NCBI GenBank assembly: GCA_937128795.1 | Contig: CAKZMQ010000001.1 | Coordinates: 186,001 to 250,000 of the forward strand | DNA: 64,000 bases | Source of the DNA: an uncultured Solirubrobacterales bacterium | GTDB lineage: Bacteria > Actinomycetota > Thermoleophilia > Solirubrobacterales > JACPNS01 | Direction: 5' to 3' | In this document: positions 27,747 to 63,645 of the stretch, one piece after another | Position numbering within the stretch: position 1 is the stretch's first letter | Layout: every line of letters starts with the position of its first letter | Notes under the pieces: generated by a model | The model's input: only the letters and a program-made list of their open reading frames with translations | What the model was told of the DNA's origin: nothing | Databases searched by the model: none | Made by a program: the position numbers and the translations under genes

Positions 27747-27838
27747 CTTACGATCGCCAGCGGAAGCAGCGATCAGATCGAAGATAGGATTAACCCCGCT
27801 GATACGTATTTCGGCAGCTGTTTGAATATCAGTGCTCG

Positions 27839-27911
27839 GGGCTATAGCTCAGTTGGTAGAGCGTTCGGTTCGCAATCGAAAGGTCGCCGGTTCGAATCCG
27901 GCTAGCTCCAC
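27839..27911 (+). tRNA. tRNA-Ala (anticodon CGC)
   Basis: 73 nt. Acceptor GGGGCTA pairs with TAGCTCC and contains the alanine identity pair G3-U70. Anticodon stem TTCGG/TCGAA encloses TTCGCAA (anticodon CGC, reading GCG). T-arm CCGGTTCGAATCCGG, discriminator A at 27911, no encoded CCA. Confidence 0.96.
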
Positions 27912-27963: not shown

Positions 27964-28596
27964 ATGGCGGTAAGGGACCGAATCCGAAAAGTCAAGCACC
28001 TGCAGAACAAGAACTTTGTCTGCGTGCTTGAGAACCCTCGGGACATCGTGAACATCGCTTCTGCGATGCGGAACATCTCGGCGTTTGGCGTAGAGAAGTT
28101 GTACGTGATCGGCGACAACCCGGTCGTCAGCGACTTCGAAACCTCGAGAAATCACAAACACCTGCGAAGGATCAGCGTCGGTGCGAATCGTTGGGTGTTC
28201 GTGCGGCGGTTCGACACAGCGGCCGATTGTGTTGAACATCTCCGTAAAAACTTGTTCACGATCGCGGTCACCTCGTCTCACGTCAAAGACAAAACAAACG
28301 TCTCGCTTTACGAAGGCACATTTACCCAGAAACGGCTCGCGGTGTGGTTCGGCAATGAATCGTCGGGAGTTTCAGACGAGGCCGTTGCCAGCGCAGATCT
28401 CTGCATCGAAATTCCGATGGGCGGCATCGTCGAGAGTCTCAACCTTGGTACCAGTACGGGAATCATTTTGAGTTTCATCAGTTACCAGCGATTGCGTTTT
28501 GTCTTTGAGCGGAGCAAGGTCAGATTCAAGCCGAGCGGCGCGCGGAATCAGAAGATGCGCTCTTGGTCGGACTTCATCAATCCAAACCGGGACTAG
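27964..28596 (+). CDS. SpoU/TrmH-family RNA 2'-O-methyltransferase (intact copy)
   Basis: 210 residues from ATG 27964; the track start lies in tRNA-Ala. SPOUT motifs: NFVCVLENPRDIVNIASAMRNISAFGVEKLYVIG (motif 1, N-x-G/S-A-x-x-R), WFGNESSGVSDEAV (motif 2, FGxExxG) and IEIPMGGIVESLNLGTSTGIIL (motif 3, I-P-M-x-G-x-x-ES-LNhSxA). It would methylate a 2'-OH in tRNA or rRNA with SAM; the target is unknown. It sits 52 nt after tRNA-Ala. A damaged second copy lies at 55860-56489. Confidence 0.88.
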   Translation: MAVRDRIRKVKHLQNKNFVCVLENPRDIVNIASAMRNISAFGVEKLYVIGDNPVVSDFETSRNHKHLRRISVGANRWVFVRRFDTAADCVEHLRKNLFTIAVTSSHVKDKTNVSLYEGTFTQKRLAVWFGNESSGVSDEAVASADLCIEIPMGGIVESLNLGTSTGIILSFISYQRLRFVFERSKVRFKPSGARNQKMRSWSDFINPNRD

Positions 28597-53792: not shown

Positions 53793-55049
53793 TTACACAG
53801 AAGACAGCGACGTCGTGTGCGCCTTTAGCGCCGCAGCCGATGGTGCCTCGTTCAGTTCTCCCAACTGATCGAGGATTTCGCGCAGCACAGGCAGTTCCAC
53901 AAAAATTCTTGTCCCGCCGCCCTGAGGGCTTTCGATCGCAAATTTGCCGCCAACTGCGTCGACTCGGTCCGCCAATCCGTGTAATCCGGTCCCCTTTGAG
54001 GGATCTGCGCCGCCACAGCCATCATCGCTAACAATCAACGCAAGTTTTGAATCTGCGATGGTGACTGAGATTTCGACGTTCGCGGCGTGCGAACCTCGCG
54101 CAATGTTCGTAAGCGCCTCAGCGACGACAAAGTAAGCAGCCGACTCAACTGCTCTTGGAAGGTTTTCATCGCAGGAGCCTCGAATCTTGGTTGGTATCGG
54201 GCAGCGGTCCGCGAGCGACTTGATCGCACCGTCTAGACCGCCGTCAGAGAGAATCGCGGGATGAACACCGCGTGCAAGCTCTCTGAGTTCTTCCGTGATG
54301 GTTGTCAGCGCAGCCGCTGATCGAACCAACGCAGCGCGTGACCTTTCGTCTATCGCGGGATCGTTAGCCGTGAGTGCAAGATCCAGGGCGATCGAGACGA
54401 GACCTTGCTGAGCTCCGTCGTGAAGGTCGCGTTCGATTCGCCGCTGTTTTTCGTCGGCCGATGCCAACAATCGCAGCCGCGAACTGCTGATCTCGGCGAT
54501 TTCCGCACGAAGTTCTGCCTCAAGTCTCGAATCACGCATCGCTGGTCCGATGTCGCACTCAGCGGCACCGAGAAGGTCCGACCGGTCGTTCGCGTTGGAC
54601 GAGTACACGACCGCACCAACGCACTCATTCAAGTCGTCGATTGGATGAACGACGCGGTTGCGTGCCTCCGCTGCCGCATCAAACTCTTGACCACATTCGG
54701 TCACAAACCTGTTTTTCTCCTGTAGCCAGTAGACAATCTCAACCGACGGATCGCCAAGCAGTTTGGCGAGCAGTTCTCGCAGTTCAGCTTGGCTCGCCGT
54801 TTCGCAAGACGCTCGCGACGAAAGTTTTTTTAGGGCCAGCCCTCGCGCAAATCCGCGCTGTCTGAGGCCAATGTGGATGGCGATCGGAATCACCGCCACG
54901 ATCACCGTCGTCACCAAAGTTGCGGACGCTGCGAGACCGATCAAAACCCCCGAACAGATCAAGAGGAGTCCGACGACGGGTCCTCTCCCGGCTAGCCACG
55001 CCCAGAATGAGAGTGCAAACTTCGAAAGCTGCGGCGGTTGGGTTCCCAT
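53793..55049 (-). CDS. NarL-family sensor histidine kinase (HisKA_3)
   Basis: 418 residues from ATG 55049 (MGTQPPQLSK); the track start lies 13 codons upstream. Two N-terminal membrane helices, a sensor region beginning LLAKLLGDPSVEIVYWLQEKNRFV, then RRIERDLHDGAQQGLVSIALDL with the phosphoacceptor His, and an HATPase with NIARGSHAANV, VSDDGCGGAD and GTGLHGLADRV. Relatives usually have more membrane helices, so the 5' end may have been trimmed by the island beginning near 55100. The likely partner is the response regulator starting at 63909. Confidence 0.88.
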   Translation of the reverse strand: MGTQPPQLSKFALSFWAWLAGRGPVVGLLLICSGVLIGLAASATLVTTVIVAVIPIAIHIGLRQRGFARGLALKKLSSRASCETASQAELRELLAKLLGDPSVEIVYWLQEKNRFVTECGQEFDAAAEARNRVVHPIDDLNECVGAVVYSSNANDRSDLLGAAECDIGPAMRDSRLEAELRAEIAEISSSRLRLLASADEKQRRIERDLHDGAQQGLVSIALDLALTANDPAIDERSRAALVRSAAALTTITEELRELARGVHPAILSDGGLDGAIKSLADRCPIPTKIRGSCDENLPRAVESAAYFVVAEALTNIARGSHAANVEISVTIADSKLALIVSDDGCGGADPSKGTGLHGLADRVDAVGGKFAIESPQGGGTRIFVELPVLREILDQLGELNEAPSAAALKAHTTSLSSV

Positions 55050-55143
55050 GATCGCGCGCCAATAGGGTACGCGTCTGGGTGACGGCATTCCCGATCAATT
55101 CGAGTAGACCCCAAAAGGCGAGTGTCCACAAGGGCGGGGGGAT

Positions 55144-55392
55144 TCCAGTCGTAGTGATGCGGCCGAAGGCGTCGTAGACGTATCCTGTGTCAGTGATGCG
55201 ATCGGCATTGCCGTAGGTGCTGGTCTCGGTAATCCCGCTGCCGCCGAAATCGCAGTAGTAGTCGTTCTCTGCAATTGACTTTTTTGCGGTGCGGTTTGAG
55301 TCGGCATCCAGGGTGTATTCGCGGACTTTGCATTTCCAGGTGCCTGAATCGTTGCGCCAGTCGCCAGCCGCAGACAGGCGGCCTGCCTTGTC
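55144..55392 (-). pseudogene. orphan Rhs/YD-repeat fragment
   Basis: 83 codons in frame with the long minus-strand ORF 54784-55422. GDWRNDSGTWKCKVREYTLD and DYYCDFGGSG, then GYVYDAFGRITTT, align with GDWRNDSSIWKCNVREYTLD.., NYYCDFGGSG.., GYQYDAFGRITTT of the intact Rhs protein (about 57.9-58.15 kb). No start, no neighbouring rhs sequence and no toxin tip. A relic of another rhs copy or a displaced segment. Confidence 0.75.
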
Positions 55393-55397
55393 ATGCG

Positions 55398-55832
55398 ATG
55401 CGCCCGCTGATCGCCAGATCAATCCCGGCTGAAGCAGTGATCGACCACCTGGCCGAGCTGTTCCTGCTGCATGGGGCGCCGAGGATCATGCGCTCTGACA
55501 ACGGCTCGGAGTTCACGGCGCAAGAGGTGACAGGCTGGCTGAAGAAGCTGGAAGTGGGCTGCGCCTTCGTCGCGCCAGCATCGCCTTGGGAGAACGGATA
55601 CGTCGAGACCTTCCATGACAAGCTCAGAGACGAACTACTCAGCCTGGAGCTGCTTTTCACGCTCCAGGAGGCGCGGGTCGCAGTCTTTGACTGGATCGAC
55701 CACTACAACCACGACCGACCGCACGCAGGGCTCGGGAATCTCACGCCGGCTCAGGTCCTTTACGGTTTGGAGGCGATGAGTTCGATCACCGTCACACCAG
55801 AACACTCAATTCAACAGAAAAGGGCTTTCTGA
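55398..55832 (+). pseudogene. truncated IS3-family transposase (OrfB C-terminal part)
   Basis: 144 codons: VIDHLAELFLLHGAPRIMRSDNGSEFTAQEV (second catalytic Asp), SPWENGYVETFHDKLRDELL (catalytic Glu), and the family ending FDWIDHYNHDRPHAGLGNLTPAQVL. The HTH_21 region and the first Asp are missing. The upstream ORF codons (from 55275) are antisense to the rhs fragment. Non-functional on its own. Confidence 0.85.
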
Positions 55833-55859: not shown

Positions 55860-56489
55860 GCGGTAAGGGACCGAATCCGAAAAGTCAAGCACCTGCAGAA
55901 CAAGAACTTTGTCTGCGTGCTTGAGAACCCTCGGGACATCGTGAACATCGCTTCTGCGATGCGGAACATCTCGGCGTTTGGCGTAGAGAAGTTGTACGTG
56001 ATCGGCGACAACCCGGTCGTCAGCGACTTCGAAACCTCGAGAAATCACAAACACCTGCGAAGGATCAGCGTCGGTGCGAATCGTTGGGTGTTCGTGCGGC
56101 GGTTCGACACAGCGGCCGATTGTGTTGAACATCTCCGTAAAAACTTGTTCACGATCGCGGTCACCTCGTCTCACGTAAAGGACAAGGAAAATGTTTCGCT
56201 TTACGAAGGCACTTTCACCCAGAAACGACTCGCCGTGTGGTTCGGCAATGAATCGTCGGGAGTTTCAGACGAAGCCGTTGGCAGCGCCGATCTCTGCATC
56301 GAAATTCCGATGGGCGGCATCGTCGAGAGTCTCAACCTTGGTACCAGTACGGGAATCATTCTGAGTTACATCAGCTACCAGCGCCTGCGTTTTGTCTTTG
56401 AGCACAGCAAGGCCAGGTTCAAGCCGAGCGGCCTCCGGAGCCAAAAGATGCGCTCTTGGTCGGATTTCATAAACCCGAACCGAGACTAG
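55860..56489 (+). pseudogene. second SpoU/TrmH-type methyltransferase copy lacking its start codon
   Basis: It begins at the second codon (GCG) of the gene at 27964 and keeps the frame to the same stop, but ATG is replaced by IS-end sequence and the upstream frame closes at 55830 without a start. The only candidate start is an internal GTG at 55917, which removes the first part of the fold (motif NFVCVLENPRD). The first 317 nt are identical to copy 1 by my reading; the remaining 313 nt have about 34 differences, many synonymous. All three SPOUT motifs are still encoded. Confidence 0.8.
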
Positions 56490-56734: not shown

Positions 56735-56938
56735 CTAGAGCTTGATTGCCGCGTACACGGATACAGCCGTAGCAATCGTAGCCGCCGCAGCAGCTATTAG
56801 CAACGGTGCCGACTGCTCCGCGATTCCGGCCAAAATGAAGCCGACGGCAAGAATTCCCAGGATTGGGATCAGCCACCAGATCAAGCTAAACGCGAGAGAT
56901 CCACGTGCGATGCGAACTGCAAGCCTCCGTCTATTCAA
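56735..56938 (-). CDS. two-helix membrane protein, candidate immunity protein of the Rhs toxin
   Basis: 67 residues from TTG 56938, whose TTGA overlaps the Rhs stop codon by 4 nt. CGGAGG just inside the gene cannot be its own Shine-Dalgarno, so re-initiation after Rhs translation is likely. Basic N-terminus (NRRRLAVRIARG), then two membrane helices (LAFSLIWWLIPILGILAVGFILAG and LLIAAAAATIATAVSVYAAI). Position directly after a polymorphic toxin tip is the standard immunity-gene position. No immunity family recognised; function inferred from context. Confidence 0.5.
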   Translation of the reverse strand: MNRRRLAVRIARGSLAFSLIWWLIPILGILAVGFILAGIAEQSAPLLIAAAAATIATAVSVYAAIKL

Positions 56939-59900
56939 TGGGCCTCCTCAACTCCGCCGGGAATCGAGCTATCGAGGATACACCCACCAACGTTCTCCCA
57001 CCGTTTACTGACTTTGCGGTGTTTGTAGACGACTGAAACATCGCCTCTCCGATTTTTGTATGTGTATTTTCTGACCTGCCATGTCGCTCGTTCCTTTTTA
57101 GTGCACTTGTATGTGTTGTAAATCAGTCTCACAACACGAACAACGGCAATGAACTTTTTCCAGCCGAAGTTCGCGATTTTCTTCCACACAGCCTTTCTTT
57201 TTGTACCACGCTTGCGTACAGTCTTTTGTTTGTAGACCGTCCAAGATTGAGTCTGGTTGTAGTAGCGAACATGTTCGACTTTTCGCAACGTGAAAGTATG
57301 ACTTGAGGCCATCCCAGTCACGTCGCTCAAGTTAATCGGATCACTCGGATACTCATACGGATTAGCCGTCCCTCCGAGCACCGGATCCTCCTGCAAGAAA
57401 CGACCAGTCTGAGGCGCGTACAGCCGCACTCCCATTGCGATCATTCCCTGGCTCGTAAGCGCCTCGCGCTGCTTGGACCCATGGAAGCCGTAGCGTCGGT
57501 CTGCCGGCAAGTCGGTCTTTGGCACGCCGAACTCATCGATCTCTGCTGACTCCACTGGATCAGGGAAGCCACTCGCCACCACGTCGCCCCTGAGGTTGAC
57601 AAAGTGGTACTTGGCACTGCCCGTATTGTCTTGCACGCCTGCGGCTCCGTCGATCCCGCCGATGTAGCGCTGCCAGGTCGAGGTTCCGGTCTGGATCCAA
57701 GCCGGAGAGTCCGTGTCGTCGACGTAGGCGTACTTCTCGGTGGTCGTGTTGCCTCCGGTCACCTTGGTCTTGACCGACATGCGCTGGTTGGGATCGAGAT
57801 CGAGCGTTTGGCTTGTGCCGTTTTGGCTCACCGAGCGTGCGAGGTCGTTGACGTAGTAGCTAGCGTTGAAGTCGCCGGTGCCGCCTGCTGCTGCCTGAGG
57901 CGTGGTGGTGATTCGGCCGAAGGCGTCGTATTGGTATCCGGAGTCTGTTGTGCGGTCGGCGTTGTCGTAAGCGCTCGTGGTGGTGGTGCCGCTCCCGCCG
58001 AAATCGCAGTAGTAGTTTTGGTCGGCGATCGTCTTCTTTTCTAGGCGATTGGAGTCCTCGTCGAGCGTGTACTCGCGCACGTTGCACTTCCAAATGCTCG
58101 AGTCGTTGCGCCAGTCACCGACTTCGGTGAGGCGGCCGGCCTTGTCGTAGCGGTATTCGTAGGCGGTTTCCTTGATCGACTGGCCCTGCGGCTTGATCTT
58201 CTGCCAGAGCTCGCGGATCTGGCCGTGGGCCGACTCCGTTGCCCAATTCTCGAAGACGAGGCCGTTTGAGTTGGAGTAGGAGACGTAGTCCTGAAAGCCC
58301 GAGGCGGTGTAATTGAAAGTCTTGATCATGCCGCCGGGCATCGACGTGGAAACCACGCGGCCGTCCTGGTCGTAGGTTGCGGAAAAGACGCCGGTGCCCG
58401 AATCGTTGATGCTGGTCAGGTCGCCGGTGATCGGGTCGTATGAGTGGATTCTTGTGGCCTTGGAGTCTCCTGTTTGTTGGACTCGGGAGAGTTGGTCGTA
58501 GACCGTGTATGAGCTGTGGCCCTCGGAGTCGGTGTAGTTGGTTTGGCGGCCGATCGCGTCGAAGGTGCGCGAGATCGTCTTGTGGACCGATCCGTTTGCG
58601 TTCAGGGATTGTGTTTCTACTTCCTGCCCGGTCGTCGGGCTGTAGATGTGCTTCGTGGTTTTCACCGGTTCGCCAACCGAGCCACTGACCGACTCGGTGA
58701 CTACGCGGCCGGCTTCGTCGTAGGTCACGGTCGATGTGCGAGTTTGCAGGTCGTTGCTGCTGTCGTACACCTGCTCCACTGAAGTGAGCGGTTGGCGCAG
58801 ATGGTTGTAGGTGAACTGTTGAGTCGGAAGCTTCGGCAGGCCGCTCGTGGACGGGTCCGCGCCTTGAAACACTTTGCAGGCGAGTCCTCGCCACTCGGGT
58901 GTACCGCCACATTCACTGTGCTCGGTGTTCGCCTCGGCCGTGTAGTAGACCGTTCTGGTGGTACTCGGTTCGGCGAGATTCTGCGATCGAGGCTGGTAAC
59001 GAGCCGTTTCCATACCGTCAGCATTGACGTCGACCTTTCGTTTTATTTGGAGATTGCCGGAGCCGGGATCGGTGACAGTCTCAAGCGGCACTCGGAGTTT
59101 CCATTGTGCTTCTGTGCTGCCGTAGTTGGACAGGGTTGTTCTGACGTCGTGGTCGGTCGTTTCGACCAGCGCGGAGACTTTTACCATCGTCACGAGATCA
59201 AATGGTTCTCCAGTAACAGTGTCCGGATCAATCGGATCCACCGGATCTATCCCGTCGCCTGGGTCGTCCTCACCGTCATACCAGTAGCGCGTTCGGGTTC
59301 GCGCCTCCGCGGCTGTGCCGTTGTCAAGCCTCACCGAGCGCTCAGGACCGAGGGTCTCGGTCAGGTGTCGAGCGCCGGAGGGCGAGCCGGGAACGTCGTC
59401 GTAATGGTTCTCGGTGGACCATTTCTTGTCGGCGGCCTCGGCAAACTCGATTTCCTCAGTAGTTGTTCGCGGCAGCGCTTTCAGGCGATCGCGATTCGTT
59501 GGAGTGAGAGTGCGCACGACGCTGCCCCACTTGTCGTACTCGGTGACACTGACGCGGTCGCCGGGTTCGCGAGCAAGCACTTCGCGACCCATCGGGTCCA
59601 AATAACTCATTGACGCTCGGTCGTAGTTGGTTGCCGGCGTGCCATTTGGCGGCTGATCCGGCGGGAAAACGGCAGCAGACATGAACGGCGGGCGATTCTG
59701 ACCCCACTTCTTCGTCTCGTCGACGCTGAAGTCGAATGGAGCTGAGGAGCCGGACGTAGGAACGAAGAAGCGCACGGACCACGTGGCCATGCCGGCGGAG
59801 AGTGAGGTGCGGGTGACGGTGCTCAGACGACCGTAGGTGCTGTCCTCTGGCAGTTTCGAGTAGGTGATGGTGAACGGCTGCTGTCCAGGTGGCGTCACGG

Positions 59901-62900
59901 TTCCAATTCTGTGATCGGCGGCGGTGAGGTGGGTGTACGTGGTTTTTAGGTGCGTTGGTGTCGGCAGCAATGTCGACTGCCGCGGATCCCATGCTTCTGT
60001 GAGGCGCCCGTTGGCGTCATACGCGTACTGAGCCACGACATCCTCTCGCATCGCTCCGTCCTGGCCGATTTCCGGATCAAACGTCTTCAACTTGATCGTC
60101 GTGAGACGTAGTTGTCCTGCTACTTGCGCGTAGCCGAAATTCAATGCTTGGCAACCCTGCGGGAGCGCGGCGTAGGACTGCGTTGCGGTGTGATTCTCCT
60201 CCCTGCACGTAACGCCGGCCGCAGGGGAGAAGGCGTGTGTGGGATAGGAACCGATCACCTCGTCGTGACCGAACGCATAGGTGGTTGCCTCCGACGGTCC
60301 CGACTCATAAACCTCGGTCAGGTCGTACTCGCCGGGCCAGCTGTCGGGATGCCGAGTCATGAAGCTCGCGACCGCGCCGGTCGAAGTGTCGATCAGCTTG
60401 AACCCAGCCGATCTGGTTGCGTCGTAGGCGTCTGGGATACGCTCGAGCTGGAGGGTTTCGAATCCCGCTTCGGGAACGTACTTTCCATCAATCTCGCTCA
60501 GTTCGAACGTGATGAACTCGCCGTCTGCGGTATCGACTTCCACCGTGGCGTACCGCTCGTCCTCCGGAATTCCCACGTCGGCGTAGTCGGAAACGCCAAT
60601 GTACTGGGCGCCCGTTGATGCCGACGGCAAGCCGATTCTCCAGCCCGGACCGAACACTCCGTTGCTGCCTTGCCAGTACCGCGAGTTGTATGTCCTGGTC
60701 ACGGTTAGGTCGGATTTGTACGCGGAAACTGACACGTCGGTCGTAGACATGCTGTAGTTGCCGGACACGAGATCGACTGTGCCGGGGCCGATCTCGGCCG
60801 AGTCATTCTGCGTGCCGAGGCCGCCGCGCTCAAATCGCACCGCGACGTCCTCGGAGGCCCTAACGGGTTCTGGATCGCTTCCAGCCATCAGGCCTCGCAT
60901 ATAGACCAGCCCGTCCGCAAGCCGCGGTTTGGAATCCTGATGACTACACGCACTGCCTCCGGTCTGATCCAGCTGGCGAAGTGCATCCATGTCGACCACG
61001 ACGACCTGTGTTTCAGCGTTGGAATCCAGTGCGAGACTTGCAGGTGCCTCGGTAAAAGGACTCGATTCAATACGCGTGGCAACCGGCGGCACCGCGCACC
61101 ACAAACCGTTGACGGCCCATCGATACTGAAGCGATGCCGAAGTCGCCGATCCGCGTTCACGCTTGACCTGAATCGGAACGTAACGCGAACTCGCCTGCCC
61201 TTCAACAACGGTTTCGAGCGATGCCGAGCCCACACCAACTTTGAAGTCTTTCACGGTTGTATTGCCGACATAATCCTGCGCGACGACGCGGAAGAAGTAG
61301 ATTCCCGGATCGAGCGTTTCGGCATCAAAGGTGCCCGAGTAGGAGAGCTTGCAACTGTCTAGTGCGGTGCTCGGAAACTGGTTCTGATCGCAGGCTTGGT
61401 GATCGTTCTGCTTGGGGACGTTGTTCGGATCGAAGTTGTGTTTGAGGTCTGCAGTATTGATCGTGCCGTTGGCGTGCGCACCGTAAATTTTCGCCGAGAT
61501 CTCTTTGACGCCCGACCTACGATCCAAATTGGGTGCATCCTGGCCGTCAGGACGCTTGCGACGGCCATCCAGCGCCTGGATCACGAACGGCGTGTTCGTG
61601 ACCATTGTCCTTGGCTGGGCGGTGCCGAGTGTGGCATTGTCGAGCGCGAATGCACCAAGGCGCCCGGAGATGCTGATGTCCGGTCCCGCTGAGTCGACTT
61701 TGTAAGTGCGATTCGCGGTGGTTGTACGACCGATGATGTCGGTTGCCTTGAAGCTGTAGTCGCGCTGGCCTTCAATTGGCGTGACCGCGCCGGCAATGAA
61801 CGCGGTGTAACACGGGTTCCCAACTCCGCCCCCACAAGCCGGCCCGCCGCGGTACACCTCAGACCCGTCTCGCGTGACGACCATCGCGTGATCGGCATGC
61901 CCGGATCCACCGAGCCCTACCCCAGCATCATCGGCGCGTGGGTGGATCGGGCCCACCGAATTGATCCAGTTCGGATACGTCGGGACCTGAGAAATCGTCG
62001 GAGCGTCGTAATCTGAGAAGTAGATGTACCCACCGCGCGTCGTTGCATTTCCTGTTCCGTTCGTGCTCTGGCCCGCAGCCAAATTGAAGCCTTCTTGAAA
62101 CCGAACGCGATTGCCGGGCGAACCCGCCATACCGCAGCCTGTAGTTGCGCATACGACAGTGTGAAGCGGTCCATAGCCAGACGTCGTACCCCAAGTGCCA
62201 TACGCCTGACAACCAGGGACATTGCCAGGCGCAATTTCGACGCACGCTCCCCCGACAGTCGCGCCCCAACCGGTCTCAAAACTACCCGCACCGTTCACGA
62301 GCCCGATATTCAGAACAGCGTGCGCCGCTGGAGCCTGAGTCACTGAGATCATTTCGGCGCGGAAGACCGTGGATGCGTTAGGAGGTGCATACTGAAGGTA
62401 TGCGTGATAAAAACCCGGTCCGGTGGCGGCAGGGGTGTTGTAGAGCTTGAGGCGATACCCGCTGCTCTCCGGCGTTGCGGAATATTCCATAGCCGCAGTC
62501 GGCCGATGGAACGCCCATGGCGCAACGGTTGGAGTGTTTGTAACCGGCGTCGACCCGCCGAACTCATCTCTGTACGCCGGAACCCCCCAGAAGTTCGTCA
62601 CTGGATCAACGACTATCGGATACGCGAGATCTTGTTTCCGGTGAAGAACTGCGACGCTGAGTCGATTGTCAACGATTCGGTATTCAGCCGCCACCGTGGT
62701 TCCCTGAGCATCGAAAGCCTTCACCGGTTCAATCAGTGCGATGACGGTGTCGCCAAACAGCACTTCGACCGATTGATCTTCGGTTTTACGGAGCGTGACG
62801 CCCACGCCGAACGACATGTCCAGTGCGAGGAGCGAAGGTGATTTCGGCGACCTGAGCGACCACGATACTGCCGCACCGTTAGCGACCGCCTCAGCGATCA

Positions 62901-63645
62901 AATCTGTGTCTTGTGCAGTGTTCGCGTAGAACAGCTTCTTCCCGCCGTCGAGAAGAGTCGGAAGAGAACCGCCGGCACCAGGGCGGATCCACATTCCGCC
63001 GGGTCCATCGAGCTCTCCCAGCTTGATCCCGTCTGCCAGATCAGCCGGAAATCTGGTCGGCACAGCGGTTTCAGACGCACTGAAATCTCCTGAGTCCAAC
63101 TCTTTGAGTGTCGTGTCGATCCCCTTGGGCTTTCCGGTTTCATCCTTGACTGCAATTGGCCCACCGATTGATTCCACGATCGCGTTGTGCTTCGAACGCG
63201 GAACATCGACGACGGCTGTGGTTTCGCTCAGATAGCTGAGAACTTTCGAGGTGCCCTGCATCGTCGGCGGCTGCCAGAGTGGCTGCTCGGCAAAGCCTGC
63301 CTGCTTGGAGACAAGGACTTTTCGAGATTCCCGATCACCGAGGTTTCTGTATCGCTTGCGCGAGGCCTTTCGCTCTGCCTTGGCCGCAGGAGTGTTGATT
63401 CGGCGCTGCCTCGCTTGTTTCAGTCGGTCGTGCCGCTTCGTGGACGCCGCGAGCTCTGGCGGATACGGCTTTGACGAATTTCCGGCCTTCGTCGGTGATT
63501 TGACGATCAGATCAGTTGCTGGAGACGCAGGACCGTTAGGAGCCCAAAACTGGGCGATTGCGAGAATCGCCGCCGCAAAGACGAGTGATAGGGCGGTCGT
63601 TACAACTGCCAATGTACGGCGGTGATCGTTGAATAGCGAGCGCAA
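56935..63645 (-). CDS. secreted Rhs/YD-repeat polymorphic toxin (WapA-like)
   Basis: 2,236 residues. TTG 63645 is preceded by GGAGG (complement of 63652-63656). One N-terminal signal/anchor helix ([24 protein letters not shown]) suggests Sec export. A ~350-residue N-terminal domain ends [13 protein letters not shown]; lectin/Ig-like regions follow (~370-800), then the Rhs entry motif [19 protein letters not shown] (~950) and a long run of YD repeats. The core ends with the Rhs closing motif [30 protein letters not shown]. The last ~125 residues (56938-57312) are a distinct Lys/Arg/Tyr-rich, AT-richer tip with no toxin family I recognise. Likely contact-dependent antibacterial effector. Confidence 0.9.
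   Translation of the reverse strand: [2236 protein letters not shown]
56938..57312 (-). other. variable C-terminal (toxin tip) module of the Rhs protein
   Basis: About 125 codons following [10 protein letters not shown]. The content is unusual: Lys/Arg/Tyr/Trp-rich strands ([26 protein letters not shown]), a short hydrophobic segment ([12 protein letters not shown]), two cysteines (KCTKK and GGCILD). Base composition is visibly lower in GC than the YD-repeat core, the usual sign of tip exchange by recombination. Confidence 0.6.

What the first reader, a model, noticed from the sequence alone, without database searches (positions are those of the whole stretch)
56735..57312. Unrecognised Rhs toxin tip with overlapping two-helix candidate immunity protein
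The sequence shows a full-length secreted Rhs protein ending in the standard core-closing motif, then a 125-residue basic tip that matches no toxin family I know. A 67-residue two-helix membrane protein starts in a TTGA overlap with its stop codon. In known Rhs/WapA systems the tip is the toxin and the next gene is immunity. A membrane immunity protein hints that the tip acts at the membrane or on an envelope process. The AT-richer tip points to recent exchange.
Basis: partly seen in the sequence, partly recalled or inferred. Interest (0 to 1): 0.72.

Follow-up and report, generated by a model that had tools for sequence, protein, structure and literature searches.

The report
Rhs toxin tip with membrane immunity
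A bacterium of the order Solirubrobacterales carries a large Rhs-type antibacterial weapon whose unique, strongly basic tip is followed by a tiny two-helix membrane protein that very probably protects the producer, an arrangement that recurs with different tips in nearly all its close relatives and suggests that the tips attack the cell membrane.

Summary
On the minus strand a 2,236-residue Rhs protein (56935-63645) ends in the core-closing motif, then a 124-residue basic tip (31 K+R, 7 D+E; GC 0.46 against 0.60). A 67-codon two-helix gene starts in a TTGA overlap behind GAGGAGG. Tip and partner match no family and were found in no other genome searched, so this exact pair cannot be tested by co-occurrence.

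The setting can. I read 97 Rhs core ends from the same order. In the window's own core type the tips differ almost throughout, and 13 of 14 (strict rule) are followed at once by a membrane protein, against 14 of 68 for other Rhs types (Fisher 5e-7). The exception carries DUF4258.

Best reading: a secreted Rhs/WapA-like polymorphic toxin whose tip acts at the target membrane; the 67-residue protein is its immunity protein, working like Tse5/Tsi5 or CdiA-CT(EC93)/CdiI. Toxicity, membrane action and neutralisation are inferred. Low GC is common to these tips and does not by itself show recent exchange. Outside the order the same core type has mixed partners. New member of a known kind; the new part is the lineage-wide pattern.

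The parts
56935..63645 (-). rhs gene, 2,236 aa, secreted WapA-like Rhs protein (start TTG)
   Evidence: ORF; TIGR03696, DUF6531, RHS_repeat above cut-off; GGAGG before the TTG; signal-like hydrophobic N-terminus seen in the sequence, no signal-peptide predictor run
57310..57531 (-). Rhs-associated core end (residues 2039-2112), closing with GRFLQEDPVLGGTANPYEYPSDPINLSDVTGM; carries the Asp residues that in other Rhs proteins cut the tip free
   Evidence: TIGR03696 match; both Asp, the Arg and the Gly invariant in 14 aligned cores; role from PMC8636562
56938..57309 (-). variable C-terminal tip, 124 residues, net charge +24, two Cys; predicted toxin
   Evidence: no relatives; unrelated sequence at the same place in homologues
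56735..56938 (-). 67-codon gene for a two-helix membrane protein; predicted immunity protein
   Evidence: ORF with two hydropathy peaks above 2; TTGA overlap with the rhs stop; random-position control 0.05%
56943..56949 (-). ribosome-binding site GAGGAGG of the 67-codon gene, inside the last codons of rhs
   Evidence: read
55148..55392 (-). orphan piece of an rhs core, 74.7% identical to 57902-58146; remnant of an older or displaced rhs

Best explanation
The locus encodes a secreted Rhs/WapA-like polymorphic toxin and its immunity gene. The YD-repeat shell encloses the tip; the Asp motifs at the end of the core cut near ...DVTGM and free a basic 124-residue peptide; at the target cell this peptide inserts into or disturbs the cytoplasmic membrane (depolarisation or permeability), and the 67-residue two-helix protein, translated from an overlapping start, sits in the producer's membrane and blocks it. 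Shown by sequence: the architecture, a variable tip after a conserved core, the overlapping membrane gene, and the same arrangement with unrelated tips in nearly all relatives of this core type in the order. Inferred: secretion, self-cleavage, toxicity, the membrane as target, neutralisation.
For: Architecture and domains. Conserved core with changing tips in relatives. Membrane partner right after the tip in 13/14 loci of the window's core type (strict rule) against 14/68 in other Rhs types of the same order, Fisher 5e-7; loose rule 14/14, background 12/49 window genes and 16.6% of random positions. The one exception carries a DUF4258 tip. Homologous tips on different cores have membrane partners with shared motifs. 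Type A tips are basic (p 1e-8) and types A+B Cys-rich (p 1e-4) compared with other types. Precedent: Tse5, an Rhs protein with a pore-forming tip, whose immunity protein Tsi5 has two predicted TM regions (PMC9637101); CdiA-CT(EC93) with two-helix Imm-CdiI (PMC3482391, PMC11630599). An orphan rhs piece downstream fits tip replacement (PMC12704120).
Against: Tip and small protein are singletons, so the pair itself has no co-occurrence evidence. The tip has no clear TM segment (hydropathy peak 1.14) and no glycine zipper. The structure model is uninformative. Outside the order the same core type has membrane partners in only 27 of 72 loci. A basic charge also fits nucleic-acid targets. Partner resemblance between homologous tips is motif-level only.
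Confidence: 0.6

Rival explanations
1. The tip is a cytosolic enzyme or nucleic-acid binder (for example an RNase), and the two-helix protein protects by blocking its entry at the membrane rather than its activity.
For: The tip is very basic (+24) with Lys/Arg/Tyr-rich stretches; most characterised CDI toxins are nucleases (PMC11630599).
Against: Immunity to cytosolic toxins is normally a soluble protein that binds the toxin; other Rhs types of the order mostly have non-membrane partners (14/68 membrane). No nuclease family matches.
Confidence: 0.17
2. The 67-residue protein is not immunity but an export or anchoring helper of the Rhs protein, and immunity is elsewhere or absent.
For: A SecF-like membrane protein encoded next to wapA aids WapA export in Streptococcus suis (PMC12704120).
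Against: A helper should be conserved with the core; here the membrane partners differ from locus to locus together with the tips. In S. suis the helper lies upstream. No other candidate immunity gene lies between the small gene and the orphan rhs piece.
Confidence: 0.08
3. The tip is a decayed or non-toxic end produced by a recombination, and the 67-codon frame is an accidental or remnant ORF.
For: Both are orphans in all searches; the neighbourhood is rearranged, with an rhs fragment, a transposase frame and a start-less gene copy.
Against: Strong ribosome-binding site, exact overlap with the rhs stop, and a random-position rate of 0.05% for such a small hydrophobic ORF; 13/14 relatives have the same arrangement.
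Confidence: 0.1

Closest known systems
Tse5/Tsi5 of Pseudomonas aeruginosa (Rhs effector and immunity; PMC9637101, PMC10684867)
   Same: Rhs shell with a C-terminal tip without enzyme family; immunity protein with two predicted TM regions encoded next to it; this is how the window's pair is proposed to work.
   Different: Tse5 has a PAAR-like N-terminus and is delivered by a T6SS; the window's protein has a signal-like N-terminus and no T6SS part was seen. No sequence comparison with Tse5 was made. Pore formation is shown for Tse5 only.
CdiA-CT(EC93)-type ionophores with two-helix CdiI (Imm-CdiI; PMC11630599, PMC3482391)
   Same: Tip that dissipates the membrane potential, small two-helix membrane immunity protein.
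   Different: CdiA carrier of proteobacteria, two-domain tip with an entry domain; no family match here.
WapA-type Rhs proteins of Gram-positive bacteria (Streptococcus suis; PMC12704120)
   Same: Sec-type N-terminus, Rhs core, exchangeable tip plus adjacent immunity gene, orphan rhs pieces downstream.
   Different: In the passages read here the S. suis study does not describe membrane-protein immunity; different core lineage.
TspA/TsaI and EsxX/ExiCD of Staphylococcus aureus (PMC12744356)
   Same: Membrane-depolarising C-terminal tips with membrane-bound immunity in Gram-positive bacteria.
   Different: T7SS/LXG-type carriers, glycine zippers; the window's tip has no zipper, although some core type B tips of the order do.

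Membership tests
Rhs/WapA polymorphic toxins | YD/RHS repeats and a conserved Rhs-associated core | tested here: met
   TIGR03696 47.5 bits (cut-off 32.5), RHS_repeat and DUF6531 above cut-off
Rhs/WapA polymorphic toxins | variable C-terminal tip directly after the closing motif | tested here: met
   15 cores of the same type, almost all with unrelated tips
Rhs/WapA polymorphic toxins | cognate immunity gene next to the tip | tested here: inconclusive
   A gene overlaps the rhs stop; cognate function not testable here
Rhs/WapA polymorphic toxins | aspartyl self-cleavage before the tip | not testable with these tools
   Asp residues of the closing motif present and invariant; cleavage not shown
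Rhs/WapA polymorphic toxins | toxicity of the tip | not testable with these tools
   No assay possible
Imm-CdiI / Tsi5-type membrane immunity | two transmembrane helices, small protein | tested here: met
   67 aa, two hydropathy peaks of 2.5 and 2.0; hydropathy only, no dedicated TM predictor
Imm-CdiI / Tsi5-type membrane immunity | sequence membership in a described immunity family | tested here: not met
   No Pfam, NCBIfam, PADLOC or PHROGs match near cut-off; so it is not filed as a member, only as working alike
Glycine-zipper membrane toxins (TspA, EsxX, TelE) | (G/A/S)xxxGxxxG or GxxxGxxx(G/S/T) in the tip | tested here: not met
   None in the window's tip

The most novel reading that the evidence does not exclude
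In Solirubrobacterales one secreted Rhs core lineage is specialised for membrane-attacking tips: many unrelated short, basic, Cys-containing tips, each paired with its own membrane immunity protein and exchanged as cassettes between cores; the window's tip is one of several undescribed membrane-toxin families.
Probability: 0.4. Interest if true: 0.6.

Novelty: new member of a known kind. Interest (0 to 1): 0.42.

Why it matters
The membrane-acting Rhs and CDI tips found in the papers read here come from proteobacteria. If the reading is right, a poorly studied actinobacterial lineage holds a set of short basic membrane-active tips with matching one-gene immunity, and the type of partner (membrane or soluble) would predict where an unknown tip acts.

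Tried and rejected
Relatives of the tip: order (232 genomes), class (399 genomes), genome contigs, viral contigs, plasmids: none credible; the order hit G014 has four internal stops. Small-protein hits in other genomes look like generic TM matches, mostly inside long frames. Internal repeat of the tip (VYKxxxVxKR twice): score reached in 16% of shuffles, rejected. NCBIfam LIC_13246 match rejected. AlphaFold on the single sequence gave one long helix at low confidence, mean pLDDT 51, so no fold search was run. A general link of this core type to membrane partners across actinobacteria was considered and not borne out: 27 of 72 outside the order. Glycine zippers as a common mark of these tips: frequent in other Rhs types too, not diagnostic. 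A search for more members of the AAC[FY]GW tip family in the order found no clear new ones.

Full report
What is there. On the minus strand, 56935-63645 encodes a 2,236-residue Rhs protein: TTG start behind GGAGG, signal-like N-terminus, DUF6531 at residues 957-1004, RHS repeats, and TIGR03696 at 2039-2112. After the closing motif GRFLQEDPVLGGTANPYEYPSDPINLSDVTGM follow 124 residues with 31 Lys+Arg and 7 Asp+Glu, two Cys, and a central amphipathic stretch WKKIANFGWKKFIAVVRVVRLIY. The stop overlaps the TTG start (TTGA) of a 67-codon gene with two strong hydrophobic segments and GAGGAGG four bases upstream. A small, strongly hydrophobic ORF that starts within 8 bases of a given point occurs at 0.05% of random positions of the window.

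No known family. Neither the tip nor the small protein matches Pfam, PADLOC, NCBIfam or PHROGs near cut-off, and the tip has no PDB sequence match. The weak NCBIfam match (17 of 70 bits) is discounted; shuffled tips reach 13-15 bits with other families. No credible relative of the tip was found in 232 genomes of the order, 399 of the class, the 85,000-species genome collection (pattern search, which finds close relatives only), viral contigs or plasmids, nor among the other Rhs tips collected here.

Context test. Record titles of matching contigs place the order as Solirubrobacterales. From 97 Rhs core ends in the order I defined core type A by the window's own closing motif (GG[ST]x[NL]xYxY), without reference to tip or partner. 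Type A tips are almost all unrelated to one another. A membrane-protein ORF starts between -60 and +120 of the rhs stop in 14 of 14 type A loci, and in 13 of 14 with a stricter rule (hydropathy above 1.8 and at least 55 aa). Comparison values are 17/69 (loose) and 14/68 (strict) for Rhs types other than A and B, 12/49 for other genes of the window (hand-picked list), and 16.6% for random positions (Fisher p 5e-7 for the strict comparison). The loci share ancestry, so p-values are indicative. A second core type, B (closing motifs such as DPLDQTGDL..NRYVYAGGDP), has tips of about 56-100 residues, several glycine-rich with Cys, and partners that are often 52-68-residue two-TM proteins. Its boundary was drawn by hand, so the claim rests on type A. 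The single strict type A exception, L163, has a tip with DUF4258 above the Pfam cut-off.

Cassettes. Tips of L048, L112 and L114 share AAC[FY]GW...C.P.GF although their cores are of types A and B (phmmer 1e-5 to 1e-7). Their membrane partners share YxxCDR near the C-terminus. Tips of L030 and L031 (2.5e-17) have partners that share LLxPSxR. The partner similarities are motif-level and were not significant in phmmer, so they support joint exchange but do not prove it. An order-wide search with the first tip family found no clear further members.

Limits. Outside the order the same core type has membrane partners in 27 of 72 loci, so the strict pattern belongs to this lineage and not to the core type everywhere. 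Type A tips are basic (p 1e-8 against types C and D) and, with type B, Cys-rich (p 1e-4), which fits extracytoplasmic or membrane action but is not specific to it. Membrane proteins were called by hydropathy alone. The single-sequence AlphaFold model is uninformative. Low GC is common to these tips, so it is not by itself evidence of recent exchange.

How it most likely works. In Rhs1, Asp residues of the closing motifs cut the tip free inside the shell (PMC8636562). In Tse5 the tip depolarises membranes, and its immunity protein Tsi5 has two predicted TM regions (PMC9637101). By analogy the window's protein is secreted, the tip is released at the target and acts at its membrane, and the 67-residue protein protects the producer. 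The EsxX study notes that a membrane immunity protein suffices for Tse5 because the Rhs shell shields the toxin inside the producer (PMC12744356); this would explain why a single membrane partner is enough here. All functional steps are inferred.

Neighbourhood. An orphan rhs core piece lies at 55148-55392 (74.7% to 57902-58146), as expected where new tip/immunity pairs push old ones downstream (PMC12704120). A transposase-like frame overlaps it, and a start-less copy of an RNA methyltransferase-like gene (94.6% to 27967-28596) separates it from the small gene.

Noticed in passing
55860-56489 and 27967-28596: A 630-base copy (94.6% identical) of an RNA methyltransferase-like (TrmH/SpoU-type, named from the sequence by eye) gene that sits behind tRNA-Ala at 27838-27911. 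The copy runs exactly to the stop codon and has lost the start codon.
   Followed up: partly
55275-55832 (+): Integrase/transposase-like frame that overlaps the orphan rhs piece and ends next to the start-less gene copy; looks like an insertion that broke an older rhs.
   Followed up: no
53793-55088 (-) and L051 510-1199; L052 10347-13734; L053 59-853: Histidine-kinase-like and NarL-type response-regulator-like genes lie beside rhs in the window's genome and in G051 of the same genus; in G052 a regulator gene lies beside rhs. A possible regulatory link.
   Followed up: no
L135, L159, L160, L115, L105: Core type B tips of 61-98 residues, glycine-rich with Cys (for example GGAVSGAVGFLAGGAGAAVAGGAGAGAAG), most followed by 52-68-residue two-TM proteins; they look like bacteriocin-like membrane peptides on an Rhs carrier.
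   Followed up: partly
L199, L206, L212, L214, L215, L217, L223, L225, L227, L229, L238: One tip family of about 124-128 residues conserved across Nonomuraea, Planotetraspora, Herbidospora and related genera on the same core type, mostly without a membrane partner; may be neutralised differently or not be a toxin.
   Followed up: no
L051 1292-12529 (-): Just outside the window, a 3,745-residue repetitive surface-type protein next to the response regulator.
   Followed up: no
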